NCBI GenBank assembly: GCA_903847205.1
Contig: CAINDA010000035.1
Span: 248,001-312,000, forward strand
Length of the DNA: 64,000 nt
Reading direction: 5' to 3'
Source: an uncultured Bacteroidota bacterium
GTDB taxonomy: Bacteria; Bacteroidota; Bacteroidia; 2-12-FULL-35-15
Shown here piece after piece: positions 25,449 through 32,386 of this stretch. The first letter of the stretch is position 1. Each line of letters opens with the position of its first letter. Position numbers and translations under genes: made by a program. The notes below the pieces were generated by a model that did not search any database, was not told the DNA's origin, and was given only the letters and a program-made list of their open reading frames with translations.

Positions 25449-26054
25449 ATGATTCATCCCCATACGGAACTGCAGTATATCAGCGACAAAATAGGCTACG
25501 GCGTTGTTGCGAAATCATTAATAAAAAAAGGAACTATCACCTGGGTACTGGATAAACTCGATAGGGAATTTACGCCCAAAGAACTGCTTGAAATGGATGA
25601 TGTTTACAAAGAAATTCTTGAAACATACACTTACAGAAATAATAAAGGAAATCATATTTTATGCTGGGATAACGCGCGCTTTGTGAATCACAGTTTTAAA
25701 TCAAACTGCTTTACCACTGCTTATGATTTTGAAATTGCTGTGCGCGATATACATCCAGGCGAACAGCTTACTGATGATTACGGCTACCTTAATATCAGCG
25801 AACCTTTCGAAGCTGTTTCCGAAGGCACAAAACGTAAAGTAGTATATCCTGATGATCTTGTAAACTTTTATGAAGAGTGGGACAAACTACTGCTGTCGGG
25901 ATTTAAGAAAATAAAAAGTGTTGACCAGCCGATGAAACACCTCATCGATAAAAAGCTCTGGAAAAAGATTGAAAACATTGTTGATGGAAAACAGGAAATG
26001 GATTCAATTTTAAAATGCTACTACAAAGAAAAAGTACACTCTTCTAAAAAGTAA
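25449..26054 (+). CDS. SET-domain protein (putative lysine methyltransferase)
   Basis: 201 residues. The SET fold is shown by GYGVVA (16-21), RFVNHSFKSNC (77-87, the RFxNHSxxxN S-adenosylmethionine-binding motif) and GEQLTDDYGY (104-113, with the catalytic tyrosine region). The post-SET cysteines are not evident. The C-terminal 60 residues are helical and basic. Cytoplasmic. SET proteins are chiefly eukaryotic but recur in bacteria, acting on ribosomal or DNA-binding proteins or as effectors; the target here is unknown. It is flanked by repeat elements on both sides. Confidence 0.82.
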   Translation: MIHPHTELQYISDKIGYGVVAKSLIKKGTITWVLDKLDREFTPKELLEMDDVYKEILETYTYRNNKGNHILCWDNARFVNHSFKSNCFTTAYDFEIAVRDIHPGEQLTDDYGYLNISEPFEAVSEGTKRKVVYPDDLVNFYEEWDKLLLSGFKKIKSVDQPMKHLIDKKLWKKIENIVDGKQEMDSILKCYYKEKVHSSKK

Positions 26055-27969: not shown

Positions 27970-30194
27970 ATGAAAACAAAAAACTTACTCATTGCCTTAA
28001 TCTCTTTTGCATTATTAAATCTGCAATTCGGTACTTTAAACTGCAAGGCTCAAACCTCGGTTCCTGGCGGTGTAGTAAACGGAACATGGACACTTGCCGG
28101 TTCGCCATATAATGTGCAGGGAAGTATTGAAATTCTTAATGGTGATTCGCTTATTATCCAGCCGGGCGTTACTGTTAACTTTCAAGGCACTTATAAATTT
28201 TTAATACTTGGTAAATTAAAAGCAATTGGTACAATTGCAGATACCATAACTTTTACCGCAGGTGACACTACCAATGGATGGAAAGGAATACGATTTGACA
28301 ACACTTCTATTACAAATGATACTTCTAAAATAATATACTGCAAACTTCAATACGGAAAGTCAACTGGCAGTTCACCCGATGATAGAGGTGGTGCATTTTA
28401 TTTCAAAAATTTTTCTAAAGCCAGTATTTCAAATTGCCGTATTTTAAATTGTAAAGCAGATTATGCTGGCGGGGGTATTTATAGTGAGAATGGCTGTCCC
28501 AAGATTACAAATAACATTATTTATAATAATACTGGTGGTTCTGAGGGTGGGGGTGGAATTTATTGTAATAACAATAATAACTGTGCTATTACTAACAACA
28601 TTATTAACTACAATAAGGCTTCAGGTGTTGGCGGTGCTGGAATTAATTGTTGGGGCGATAGTGGTCTCGTAATTTCAAACAACATTATATCAAACAATAC
28701 TGGACATGGAATTGTTTGTGCCAATAATCCTATAATCTCCAACAATACTATTTCTAACAATTATGGCGGAGGAATTGGTTGCAACTACAGCAGTAATCCC
28801 AACATCAATTACAATACAATCATCAATAATACTGGCGGAGGAATTGGTTGCCAAAGCTATTATAGTCCTTCCATTAAGTATAACACTATTTCCAATAATA
28901 CAGGTGGTGGTGGAATTTACTGTAATAGCGTGGGTGGGATTGGTGGTGGTCCAGTAATATCCAATAACATAATATCCAACAATAATAATAGTTCTGATGG
29001 TGGCGGAATATATTGCTTCACTAGTGGCGGCGGAAGTGTTACTATATCCAGCAACACTATTTCCAATAATTCTGGTGGGAATGGCGGCGGAATTGCTGCC
29101 GGTGGTATAGCCAGCAGTATCTCTATATTCAACAATATAATTTCTTCCAACACGGCTCTAGGTGGTCAAGGCGGAGGAATTTCTTGCGGAGGAGATAGTA
29201 GTCTTGTTATATTCAACAACACTATTTCCAACAACACTGCTTCCAGTATTTCAAATAATAATAGTGGTGGTGGAGGAATTTATTGTGGTGGTAATCCCAA
29301 AATATTCAACAATATTATTTCTAACAATACAGCTTCAGGGCTTTCAACTAATGGTGGGGGGGGGGGATTTATTGCAATAACGGTAATCCTAACATCTTCA
29401 ACAACACCATTACTAACAACACCGTTTCTTCAGGCAATGGCGGTGCAATTAATATATTTTATCAAAGCAGTCCAGTTTTTACAAACAATACAGTCATCAA
29501 CAATGCTGTTTCAGGCGCAAGCGGTAAAGGAGGAGCACTGTATCTTTACTATAATTGTAATCCGATTTTCCGTAATTGTATTTTTTTCGACAATATTTCC
29601 TCCATAGGTAATACTGTTTTTATAGAGGATGAAGCAAGCGACCCTGAATTTCTATACTGCAATGTACAAGGCGGCAGCGCTGCATTTGAACTAAACGGTA
29701 ATTTTTATACCGGCGCTTATCAAAATAATATAGATACCAATGCATTGTTTGTTTCCCCATCCGCCGGAAGCGGCACAGGCTTTAACGGTATCACTGCCGA
29801 TTGGTCATTGCAACAAACTTCACCATGCATAAATACAGGGGATCCAAACGCCACATATCCAGCTAATGATATAGCAGGCAATCCAAGAGTATCAAGCGGA
29901 AGAATTGATATCGGTGCTTATGAGTTTCAGGGAGCATTGAGTATAGCAAGTAATAAAAATAGTACAGCTGTTAATTTATATCCAAACCCTTCTGCCGGCA
30001 AATTCAATATTCAAGCCACTAATGAGAATTGTTTAATTGAAATCTACAATTTGCTTGGAGAAAAAATCTATACTCAAAACGGTAACACGCAGCCATCAAA
30101 AGAAATAAACATTACCGGCTCTCCTAAAGGAATTTATTTTGTAAAAATATCTGATACAGAAAAAAGTCATACTGAAAAAATAATTATTCAGTAA
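27970..30194 (+). CDS. Right-handed beta-helix surface protein, T9SS type A, frameshifted at a G11 run
   Basis: Signal peptide 1-28 (ends CKAQ), a short beta domain, then about 20 coils of a parallel beta-helix with the 'NNIISNNTGGGIYCN' pattern. The first frame stays open to a stop at 29607 but loses the repeat after a run of eleven G (29356-29366). From 29367 the next frame resumes exactly with IYCNNGNPNIFNNTI and continues through more coils to a type A sorting domain ('VNLYPNPSAGKFNIQ', 'EKIIIQ' end) and a stop at 30194. One added G, or two lost, restores a protein of about 741 residues. As sequenced, the product lacks its secretion tail. Beta-helix repeats of this kind bind or cut polysaccharides; no catalytic residues were identified. 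Confidence 0.85.
29356..29366 (+). repeat. G11 homopolymer tract
   Basis: Eleven consecutive G exactly where the beta-helix reading frame shifts. The other glycine codons of this gene are mixed GGT/GGA/GGC, so the run is not a simple consequence of codon choice. Confidence 0.85.
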
Positions 30195-30437: not shown

Positions 30438-31460
30438 ATGTTCGGAATCAGCTACATTAAATTCGACTCAATGACTTATGTCATTCACTTTAAAAACGGA
30501 GAAGTTGCTAAAGAAGGCAGGGGGCTTTCTTTCTATTACTTCGAACCAAACAGTTCTATTTCCGCAATACCAATGGGCAGTAATGACCTTCCCTTTATTT
30601 TCAATGAAACAACCAACGACTATCAGAATATTTCTATCCAAGGACAAGTAACTTACAAAATAGGCAACCCGAAACAGTTATCCGAACTGCTCGATTTTAC
30701 TATCGACAGCAACGGCACCTACAAAAAAAATGATTCCGAAAAATTAAATCAGCGCATCATAAACGAAGCGCAGACAGCCACCTCATCCTACATTCACAGC
30801 CTTGGGCTGAAGGATTCAATACGTTCGGCAAAAACTATTGAAGCAAAAATTACTGAAGGGCTTCATGCATCGCAGGCCATTACAATTTTAGGAATAGAAA
30901 TTTTAACAGTTAATATTCTTGCCATAAAAGCAACACCCGAAATGGCAAGAGCGCTTGAAACGGAAACAAGAGAAAAGCTGTCGCAGGATGCCGACCATGC
31001 CGTTTACGAACGCAGAAACTTTGCTGTTGAACAGGAACGCAGAATAAAAGAGAGCGAGCTCAGCACCGAAATTGCAGTAGAAGAAAAGAAGAAACAGATC
31101 AACGAAAAGAAAATGGAAGCCGAAATTCAAAAGGCCGACAACGACCGTAAACTAAGGGAAATGAAAGTGCAGGCCGACATTGCAGTTGAAAACCAAAGAA
31201 AATTATTGATTGAACAAAAAACCGCCAACGAACGCAAAGAGGCCGAAACACAAGGCTTTGTTATTGAATCAACATTAAAACCTTATAAGGACATCGACTG
31301 GAAAACCCTTACAGCCCTTAACAACAATGGCGATGCACGGTTTAATATTGCTTTGGCTTTCCGCCAGCTCGCTGAAAACGCCGATAAAATCGGAACCTTA
31401 AATATCAGCCCCGATCTTTTAGAAACACTTTTAACTGACAAAAAAGATTCTAAAAAATGA
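30438..31460 (+). CDS. SPFH/band-7 domain protein
   Basis: 340 residues from the ATG at 30438. A TTG at 30378 would add 20 residues, but the family begins at 'FGISYIKFDSMTYVIHFK'. The SPFH domain covers about 1-180 and a long charged coiled coil (about 190-285, rich in E/K/R) follows, then a short helical tail. There is no membrane anchor. SPFH proteins form oligomeric scaffolds, often on membranes. The stop overlaps the start of the NAD-kinase-like gene (ATGA), so the two are translationally coupled and probably work together. Confidence 0.85.
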   Translation: MFGISYIKFDSMTYVIHFKNGEVAKEGRGLSFYYFEPNSSISAIPMGSNDLPFIFNETTNDYQNISIQGQVTYKIGNPKQLSELLDFTIDSNGTYKKNDSEKLNQRIINEAQTATSSYIHSLGLKDSIRSAKTIEAKITEGLHASQAITILGIEILTVNILAIKATPEMARALETETREKLSQDADHAVYERRNFAVEQERRIKESELSTEIAVEEKKKQINEKKMEAEIQKADNDRKLREMKVQADIAVENQRKLLIEQKTANERKEAETQGFVIESTLKPYKDIDWKTLTALNNNGDARFNIALAFRQLAENADKIGTLNISPDLLETLLTDKKDSKK

Positions 31461-32386
31461 GCATAGAATATGCAATCATAGTTAAGAACAAAACACGTCT
31501 TGAATTATTAAATGATCGTTTCAACACTCAGTCGCAGGCTCAGTTTTATATCGAACGGCAGGGAGGCAATTTTGAGGATTATGAAGCAGAACATGAAAAA
31601 TTTCATGAGTCGCTTTCATCCGTGCAGCGACAGCTTTCTAAAGTTATAAAAAACAAAATAGTTGAACGTACGTTTCTGCCTTCATTTATATTCAGTCCTA
31701 ACCAGGTTGTTATTGTTATCGGGCAGGACGGCCTTGTTGCAAACACCGCCAAATATGTAAGCGGCATCCCTATTGTTGCCGTAAACCCCGATGCCGAACG
31801 TTACGATGGTTTTCTATTGCCTTTCAATCCCGGTAATTTTATAGGAGGTGTAGAAAATGTAATGGCCGACAGGTACAATTCAAAATACGCCTCACTTGCC
31901 GAAGCAAAATTAAATGACGGACAGCGTCTCTTAGCATTTAACGATTTATTTATCGGCGCTGCCAGCCACGTTTCGGCACGTTACAAAATTTCTTACGACG
32001 GCGTAACAGAAGAGCAGTCATCATCAGGTATTATAGTTTCTACACAGGCGGGTTCTACAGGCTGGCTGAGTTCCATTTTCAATATGACTTTCGGCATGCA
32101 GCAGTTTATTGAGAATGATAATCCAATAAGAGAAAATGCAAAACTCAGTAACAATCAGCTGATGTTTGCTGTCCGCGAGCCTTTCCTAAGCAAAAGATCG
32201 CAGATAGGTTTAACAGCAGGCTTTTTAGCCGGGCAGACTAAACTTGTTTTAGAATCCTTCATGCCCTCAAACGGTATTATTTTTTCCGACGGCATCGAAT
32301 CCGACTTTCTTAATTTTAACTCCGGAAGCATAGCAACAATAGGCACTGCAAAAGAGAAAGCAAAACTGGTAACACCGGGGAGCTGA
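31457..32386 (+). CDS. NAD-kinase-like protein coupled to SPFH gene
   Basis: 309 residues related to the ATP-NAD kinase fold. The GGDGT-like motif appears as 'VIGQDGLVANTAKYV' near 88-102, the substrate loop as 'FNDLFIGAASHVSARYKI' and the glycine-rich segment as 'SSGIIVSTQAGSTGW'. The first glycine of GGDG is replaced by Q (GQDG) and the following T by L, so catalysis may differ from a true NAD kinase. The N-terminal 80 residues are an extra helical domain. It shares the ATGA overlap with the SPFH gene upstream. A housekeeping nadK is not in the window, so this could be a divergent second copy. Confidence 0.8.
   Translation: MSIEYAIIVKNKTRLELLNDRFNTQSQAQFYIERQGGNFEDYEAEHEKFHESLSSVQRQLSKVIKNKIVERTFLPSFIFSPNQVVIVIGQDGLVANTAKYVSGIPIVAVNPDAERYDGFLLPFNPGNFIGGVENVMADRYNSKYASLAEAKLNDGQRLLAFNDLFIGAASHVSARYKISYDGVTEEQSSSGIIVSTQAGSTGWLSSIFNMTFGMQQFIENDNPIRENAKLSNNQLMFAVREPFLSKRSQIGLTAGFLAGQTKLVLESFMPSNGIIFSDGIESDFLNFNSGSIATIGTAKEKAKLVTPGS

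What the first reader, a model, noticed from the sequence alone, without database searches (positions are those of the whole stretch)
30438..32386. SPFH protein translationally coupled to a divergent NAD-kinase-like protein
Overlapping ATGA start/stop links a scaffold-type SPFH protein without membrane anchor to a protein with an NAD-kinase fold whose GGDG motif reads GQDG. The pair could be a defence or stress module that senses or alters NAD, or a lipid kinase relative; no other component is adjacent.
Basis: partly seen in the sequence, partly recalled or inferred. Interest (0 to 1): 0.55.

Follow-up and report, generated by a model that had tools for sequence, protein, structure and literature searches.

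The report
SPFH-coupled divergent NAD-kinase gene pair
Two neighbouring bacterial genes, one for a scaffold-type protein and one for an unusual relative of the enzyme that makes NADP, occur together as a fixed pair and in many relatives sit among genes that rebuild NAD and clear its breakdown products, so they are probably a little-studied arm of NAD metabolism.

Summary
In detail: an SPFH gene (30438-31460) overlaps, by ATGA, a kinase-like gene (31457-32386) with GQDG. The pair is real and fixed: in 395 sampled genomes of the phylum both families occur in the same 13, adjacent in all 13; divergences correlate (r 0.95, 48 pairs). It also occurs in Proteobacteria, a spirochaete and Actinomycetota. 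'No other component is adjacent' is true of the window only: 19 of 29 relatives' loci hold an NrtR gene or NAD/ADP-ribose/RNA-repair genes (NADAR, KptA, Macro, ADP-ribosylglycohydrolase, DUF4291, Namat, RtcB). The window's genome carries such an operon, without the pair, on another contig, with a Namat-type enzyme. The kinase is closest to human mitochondrial NAD kinase (NADK2) and keeps the catalytic Asp. Best explanation (0.5): a stress-controlled NAD kinase on a soluble SPFH scaffold; the substrate is untested. Lipid-kinase and known-defence readings find no support. Against: ten loci, all from the window's nearest relatives, show no such neighbour, and Namat-type genes do not co-occur with the pair in the phylum sample. 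I found no report of the pair, but four likely papers were not held.

The parts
30438..31460 (+). SPFH/Band 7 gene, 340 aa
   Evidence: Pfam Band_7 3.1e-12; weak AlphaFold model pLDDT 72.8, pTM 0.44, Foldseek to HflK/C, stomatin, erlin, prohibitin, vault, flotillin
31350..31421 (+). conserved C-terminal tail of the SPFH protein (LAFRQLAENADKIGTLNISPDLL region), a candidate docking site (inference)
   Evidence: conserved in A2 and, more loosely, in the 14 diverse loci printed beside the window, down to Streptomyces
31457..31460 (+). ATGA start/stop overlap of the two genes
   Evidence: 9 of 48 pairs have the same 4-base overlap, distances otherwise -1 to 120 bases
31457..32386 (+). NADK2-like kinase gene, 309 aa
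   Evidence: profile to human NADK2 2.1e-17; model pLDDT 83.0, VIA-align Z 25.5 to NADK2
31721..31732 (+). GQDG motif (Gly89-Gln90-Asp91-Gly92) in place of GGDG
   Evidence: 51 of 54 GQDG, 2 GPDG, 1 GRDG; Asp 54 of 54
32018..32065 (+). region II, SSSGIIVSTQAGSTGW (residues 188-203): Ser190 where bacterial NadK has Asp, Trp203 where it has Tyr
   Evidence: alignments; human NADK2 has Ser and Trp at the same places; residues 201-216 are poorly modelled

Best explanation
The genes encode a fixed two-protein module: an NADK2-like kinase made together with a soluble SPFH oligomer that most likely is its scaffold. Shown here: constant adjacency, occurrence in the same genomes, correlated divergence, an NADK2-like predicted fold with the catalytic Asp kept, and, in many relatives, a place in NrtR-headed gene clusters that rebuild NAD+ (NAMPT-Prs, or Prs-like plus Namat-type), spend it on RNA-end repair (KptA) and clear ADP-ribose products (NADAR, Macro, ADP-ribosylglycohydrolase). 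Inferred: NrtR opens the cluster when ADP-ribose rises; salvage restores NAD+; the kinase, held on an SPFH ring, phosphorylates it (2'-OH of the adenosine ribose) to NADP+, as a stress-controlled NAD kinase beside the housekeeping NadK. In the window's organism the pair is apart from the operon, which lies on another contig.
For: 29 of 29 loci with SPFH upstream; the same 13 of 395 genomes, adjacent in all; r 0.95 over 48 pairs, 0 of 999 permutations. NADK2 best by profile and structure, whereas the genome's own NadK does not list it among 21 matches. Asp91 54 of 54. NrtR in 16 of 29 loci and NADAR, KptA, Macro, ADP-ribosylglycohydrolase, DUF4291 or RtcB in 12 of 29, either in 19; 5 of 12 sampled genomes other than the window's against 0 of 20 control stretches. 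Whole operon contiguous in G398 (L082) and its counterpart in the window's own genome (L081). L086 and L132 put the pair directly behind NrtR, a Nudix protein or unlabelled ORF, and NAMPT.
Against: No activity is tested. GQDG and the Asp-to-Ser change may alter substrate or activity; region II is poorly modelled. All 37 genomes searched with the pair have a normal NAD kinase, so no replacement is seen. 27 of 37 have neither NAMPT- nor Namat-type enzyme at E<=1e-40. 10 of 29 loci, all at 65% or more kinase identity to the window, show no labelled neighbour, though L003 and L012 have under 500 bases upstream and L007 ends after the kinase. Ring formation is inferred from the family; the SPFH model is weak. 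By single-sequence search NADK2 leads bacterial NadK only slightly, 4.1e-5 against 1.3e-4.
Confidence: 0.5

Rival explanations
1. The kinase phosphorylates a product of NAD consumption rather than NAD+: ADP-ribose, its phosphates from KptA, or an adduct freed by NADAR or Macro, to mark it for recycling or disposal.
For: Neighbours that make or clear ADP-ribose species; the Asp that touches nicotinamide in NAD kinases (passages of PMC8553519) is Ser in 54 of 54; a housekeeping NadK is always present.
Against: Human NADK2, an NAD kinase by the same review, has Ser there too in the alignment; the NAMPT-type clusters (L086, L132) lack KptA, NADAR and Macro.
Confidence: 0.2
2. The protein no longer catalyses: it senses NAD+ or ATP and switches the SPFH oligomer or a partner.
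For: Changed GGDG motif; constant partner; NAD kinase already present.
Against: The catalytic Asp is in 54 of 54, and the Asn of the short motif is invariant in alignments A1 and A3; divergence of the motif residue (Q, P, R) spares the Asp.
Confidence: 0.12
3. An anti-phage module in which the pair protects or removes NAD during infection.
For: Patchy spread (13 of 395), plasmid copies, and neighbours of kinds proposed for conflict systems in PMC9503650 section 3.8; Namat counters NADase defence in phages (PMC12774641).
Against: No PADLOC model; no match in 50,697 phage records; the neighbours are metabolic, regulatory and repair genes, and no toxin was recognised in the neighbourhoods that I labelled, many of whose ORFs are unidentified.
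Confidence: 0.1
4. A lipid or diacylglycerol kinase relative on a membrane SPFH raft.
For: GGDG-type motif is shared with diacylglycerol kinases; many SPFH proteins are membrane-bound (recalled).
Against: NAD-kinase fold throughout the 50 entries shown, best Z 25.5; no N-terminal anchor; NAD-type neighbours.
Confidence: 0.03

Closest known systems
Human mitochondrial NAD kinase 2 (NADK2/C5orf33; 7r4j, 7r4l, 7n29)
   Same: Best profile and structure match (E 2.1e-17, Z 25.5, 23% identity); N-terminal helical region, Ser in region II, Trp for Tyr, REP motif
   Different: GQDG instead of GGDG; bacterial; fixed SPFH partner; activity untested
Bacterial NadK (e.g. L001 of the same genome; P. aeruginosa 7qvs)
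   Same: Fold (Z 22.1), catalytic Asp, Asn-Glu/Asp short motif
   Different: Below Pfam and NCBIfam cut-offs; region II Asp and Tyr replaced; NadK is a separate gene in all 37 genomes searched
Stomatin/HflK-C/erlin/flotillin/vault SPFH proteins
   Same: SPFH domain followed by a long helix
   Different: No N-terminal anchor found; a short conserved tail; kinase partner
NARP1 (Adps-Namat) NAD+ reconstitution, and NrtR-NAMPT-Prs salvage operons
   Same: In G398 the pair ends an operon with a Namat-type gene and a Prs-like gene; in G146 one with NAMPT and Prs
   Different: The pair is not part of published NARP1 as far as I read; 27 of 37 genomes with the pair have neither enzyme type
ARG-centred anti-ADP-ribosylation systems with Nudix regulators (PMC9503650, section 3.8)
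   Same: Nudix-type regulator, ADP-ribosylglycohydrolase, Macro, NADAR, calcineurin-like phosphatase
   Different: That section names no SPFH or NAD kinase, and its chaperones and restriction-endonuclease domains were not among the genes that I labelled

Membership tests
NAD kinase (NadK/NADK) | NAD-kinase fold over the whole protein | tested here: met
   Z 25.5 over 284 residues to NADK2, 22.1 to bacterial NadK; predicted model
NAD kinase (NadK/NADK) | score above curated family cut-off | tested here: not met
   Pfam 16.3 of 25.5 bits; NCBIfam 29.4 of 316 bits at best. So 'divergent relative', not a filed member
NAD kinase (NadK/NADK) | GGDG motif | tested here: not met
   GQDG/GPDG/GRDG; the Asp kept in 54 of 54
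NAD kinase (NadK/NADK) | NE/D short motif | tested here: met
   Asn162-Asp163; Asn invariant, second residue Asp or Glu in the rows of A3
NAD kinase (NadK/NADK) | phosphorylates NAD+ or NADH | not testable with these tools
   needs an assay
SPFH/Band 7 superfamily | SPFH domain above the Pfam cut-off | tested here: met
   47.3 bits, cut-off 23.6
SPFH/Band 7 superfamily | N-terminal membrane anchor, as in most known members (recalled) | tested here: not met
   no hydrophobic N-terminus; one internal peak of 1.86 in the SPFH core
SPFH/Band 7 superfamily | ring or cage oligomer | not testable with these tools
   no complex prediction offered
NARP1 in the window's genome (contig C5, not the pair) | Namat signature GSX.X.X.TRD | tested here: met
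   GSYTYEYVTRD, with Glu at one position where Gln/Asn is usual; 56.6% identity to SPbetaL1 Namat
NARP1 in the window's genome (contig C5, not the pair) | Adps partner that makes ADPR-PP | tested here: inconclusive
   short Prs-like protein (273 aa) in the same operon; specificity unknown
known anti-phage defence systems | match to a PADLOC model | tested here: not met
   0 families at E<=1 for both proteins

The most novel reading that the evidence does not exclude
A soluble SPFH cage carrying a dedicated NADK2-like kinase forms an NAD(P)/ADP-ribose body: when NAD+ is broken down during RNA damage or attack, NrtR opens the operon, neighbouring enzymes rebuild NAD+ from its own fragments, and the caged kinase turns it into a phosphorylated form that NADases and ADP-ribosyltransferases use poorly, a protected reserve. 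It recalls the vault, an SPFH-bearing cage for which structures with PARP4 and with ADP-ribose are listed.
Probability: 0.15. Interest if true: 0.82.

Novelty: new variant of a known kind. Interest (0 to 1): 0.6.

Why it matters
It gives a context to an SPFH family known only by its domain and to kinase genes annotated 'sugar kinase' or 'hypothetical protein' in plasmid records. It would tie a scaffold protein to NAD+ rebuilding and RNA repair in bacteria, and it predicts a bacterial relative of NADK2 with a changed GGDG motif that a simple assay can test. It also points to a chromosomal NARP1-type locus in the window's organism.

Tried and rejected
Lipid kinase: rejected on fold. Known defence system: PADLOC none. 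Phage origin: no match in 50,697 phage records at E<=1e-5; one IMG/VR contig gave a kinase fragment at its end, followed by ORFs labelled DUF4291, NADAR and ADP-ribosylglycohydrolase (L060), possibly host DNA. Solved-structure sequence search with the SPFH gene or profile gave nothing useful.

Literature: 10 searches. SPFH + NAD kinase + operon: 0 papers; DUF4291: 0. Seen: PMC9503650, section 3.8 whole and passages; PMC12774641, sections 20, 23, 24 and passages; PMC13232231, passages; PMC8553519, passages; PMC1524935, passages; PMC11833690, abstract, outline, passages; PMC10434189, passages (its SPFH and ADP-ribosylglycohydrolase genes are in different organisms' lists); PMC7790460, abstract and outline. 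Others: search listings only. Not held, so not seen: gkw722, c2mb05487f, s41586-024-07986-w, gkn047; the pair may be named there.

Limits: one search searches with peptides of the window protein and favours close relatives; the phylum sample is the even one. Of 12 sampled neighbourhoods L133 (12 kb read) and L134 (4.8 kb contig) are short. Neighbour labels are phmmer hits at E<=1e-5 to representatives whose Pfam identity was checked; CL4 has no Pfam or NCBIfam match. One search was given 51 loci (L129 left out beforehand for its split SPFH) and kept 48 (L015, L028, L038 dropped as incomplete). The 20 control stretches were at fixed round positions in eight genomes that carry the pair, not random draws. 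Namat-type is by identity of 61% or more; the motif was read in six Namat-type and four NAMPT-type ORFs only. L086's ORF before NAMPT matches Nudix only in its C-terminal part; that its N-terminal part is NMN adenylyltransferase (NadM) is my reading, unmatched by Pfam. The 132- and 135-aa ORFs between NAMPT/Prs and SPFH in L132 and L086 have no Pfam match.

Full report
What is there. The window holds an SPFH/Band 7 gene at 30438-31460 and a kinase-like gene at 31457-32386 sharing ATGA. The SPFH protein scores 47.3 bits against Pfam's 23.6; the kinase is below the Pfam cut-off and below the cut-offs of the 12 NCBIfam models it meets. The window's genome (5.49 Mb, 72 contigs, completeness 100) has a normal NadK elsewhere.

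The pair is fixed. A genome-contig search gave 33 loci; 30 cover most of the kinase, one of these is cut at a contig start, and in the other 29 of 29 an SPFH gene lies directly upstream on the same strand. An evenly drawn sample of 395 genomes of the phylum has the kinase in 13 (12 of 171 genera) and the SPFH family in the same 13, adjacent in all 13 (in G072 the SPFH match is in two pieces). Of plasmid records, 69 match the kinase, 42 of them Rhizobium; in the 11 stretches that I opened an SPFH gene or part of one precedes it, in Proteobacteria, Treponema, Streptomyces, Kitasatospora and uncultured-bacterium plasmids. Pairwise distances of the two proteins correlate at 0.95 over 48 pairs, 0 of 999 permutations reaching that; shared descent of the hosts contributes to this figure.

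What the kinase is. A profile of 13 diverse members finds human NADK2 at 2.1e-17 and the next NAD kinase at 6.3e-6; the window protein alone separates them little, 4.1e-5 against 1.3e-4. The AlphaFold model (pLDDT 83.0; 201-216, 221-227 and 244-247 poor) has Z 25.5 to NADK2 and 22.1 to the best bacterial NadK. The genome's own NadK lists 21 matches at 1e-5 without NADK2. GQDG is in 51 of 54 members, GPDG in 2, GRDG in 1, the Asp in all 54. According to a review (PMC8553519, passages), the Asp of GGDG is the general base, Asn and Glu of the short motif and Thr and Tyr of region II matter for activity, and an Asp from the neighbouring subunit touches nicotinamide. The family keeps Asp91 and Asn162, has Asp or Glu at 163, mostly Thr at 201, has Trp203 for the Tyr and Ser190 for that last Asp. 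NADK2, an NAD kinase according to that review, also has Ser and Trp there (and Lys for the Thr) in the alignment. Altered substrate recognition is possible; loss of activity is not indicated.

What the SPFH protein is. No hydrophobic N-terminus; one internal hydropathy peak of 1.86 in the SPFH core; one long helix and a conserved tail. The model is weak (pLDDT 72.8, pTM 0.44). Foldseek gives HflK/C, stomatin, erlin, prohibitin, vault and flotillin. A ring or cage is inferred from the family, not shown.

Neighbours. In the 64-kb window no labelled NAD or ADP-ribose gene occurs; upstream lies a T9SS-type beta-helix region, downstream an L,D-transpeptidase. Of the 29 paired loci 16 have NrtR, 12 have NADAR, KptA, Macro, ADP-ribosylglycohydrolase, DUF4291 or RtcB, 19 have either and 10 neither. 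The ten are all among the eleven loci at 65% or more kinase identity to the window; only L006 of the eleven has such neighbours. L003 and L012 have under 500 bases upstream, so their neighbourhoods are partly unseen. L025 reads NrtR, SPFH, kinase, NADAR, KptA, Macro, CL4, ADP-ribosylglycohydrolase, DUF4291, all one way. Representatives were identified by Pfam. Of the 11 plasmid stretches, five have NrtR divergently beside the pair (L038-L041, L043).

Controls. In the phylum sample 5 of the 12 genomes other than the window's have NrtR or an NAD/ADP-ribose gene within about 10 kb (G146, G331, G012, G219, G133), 7 have none; of 20 fixed-position 20-kb stretches of genomes with the pair none has one (one deaminase hit, not counted as NAD-related). 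By my arithmetic, not a call, the one-sided Fisher value is 0.004. KptA is single-copy in 10 of 32 genomes searched, within 10 kb of the kinase in 6 of those 10, about 18 kb away in one (G418), and far or on another contig in three (G166, G406, the window's).

The window's own genome. On contig C5 (L081) lie NrtR, a short Prs-like gene (273 aa), NADAR, KptA, a calcineurin-like phosphatase, an NAMPT-like gene, a 691-aa ORF, an NMN transporter and a NadR-like gene, without the pair. The NAMPT-like protein carries GSYTYEYVTRD, which fits the published Namat signature except for Glu at one position (PMC12774641 section 23), and is 56.6% identical to SPbetaL1 Namat. Namat makes NAD+ from ADP-ribose pyrophosphate and nicotinamide, and a bacterial version works in vitro and in cells. 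In G398 (L082) the operon is contiguous over 9 kb: NrtR, Prs-like, NADAR, KptA, 2OG oxygenase, phosphatase, DUF4291, Namat-type, Macro, CL4, SPFH, kinase, followed on the other strand by two RlaP-like genes. The window's pair is most simply read as a separated part of such an operon; the direction of the change is not shown. That the Prs-like protein is Adps rests on position and divergence.

Against an exclusive NARP1 role. Of 37 genomes with the pair, 5 have a Namat-type and 5 an NAMPT-type enzyme at E<=1e-40; 27 have neither. In the phylum sample 20 genomes have a Namat-type gene by identity and only the window's of these has the pair; counting NAMPT-type too, 5 of 13 genomes with the pair and 25 of 382 without have one at E<=1e-60. 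In L086 and L132 the pair follows NAMPT clusters. What the two cluster types share is NAD+, hence my choice of substrate.

Mechanism. Shown: pairing, predicted fold, catalytic Asp, linkage. Inferred: NrtR senses ADP-ribose as studied relatives do (stated in PMC9503650) and opens the cluster; NAD+ is rebuilt; the SPFH-held kinase makes NADP+. Confidence 0.5.

Novelty. The searches for SPFH with NAD kinase, NrtR, NARP1, NADAR or KptA gave nothing on the pair; 'SPFH' or 'band-7' and 'NAD kinase' do not occur in the main text of PMC9503650 nor 'SPFH' and 'NAD kinase' in PMC13232231, nor 'NAD kinase' in PMC12774641. Four likely papers were not held. I call it a new variant of a known kind: an NADK2-like kinase family with a fixed SPFH partner, often in NAD-regeneration clusters.

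Noticed in passing
L036, L037, L038 (plasmid stretches): The kinase gene lies 2 bases from tetR(H)-tet(H), tail to tail with tetR, with the SPFH gene incomplete or interrupted beside it and, in L038, NrtR too; fragments of the kinase occur in further plasmid records. The tet(H) determinant seems to carry remnants of an NrtR-SPFH-kinase locus.
   Followed up: partly
window 27970-30194: A beta-helix ORF and, after a gap, an ORF with a Por_Secre_tail domain look like one T9SS-exported gene read in two pieces: a broken gene or a sequencing error.
   Followed up: no
window 25449-26054: A bacterial SET-domain protein (Pfam SET 9.9e-12).
   Followed up: no
L025 8425-8955, L082 12383-12772, L014 7496-7912: A conserved family of about 130-140 residues (CL4), without Pfam or NCBIfam match, recurs among the ADP-ribose genes.
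   Followed up: partly
L060 1-2831: An IMG/VR contig with a kinase fragment followed by ORFs labelled DUF4291, NADAR and ADP-ribosylglycohydrolase; viral or host DNA not decided.
   Followed up: no
L008: A Bacteroidota-like pair in a metagenome bin named Azoarcus: a binning error or transfer.
   Followed up: no
L129 10661-11657: The SPFH gene of G072 matches in two pieces in different frames, while the kinase beside it is open.
   Followed up: no
L081 8955-17561: The window's genome carries a chromosomal NARP1-type candidate (Prs-like plus Namat-type) with KptA and NADAR under an NrtR gene.
   Followed up: partly
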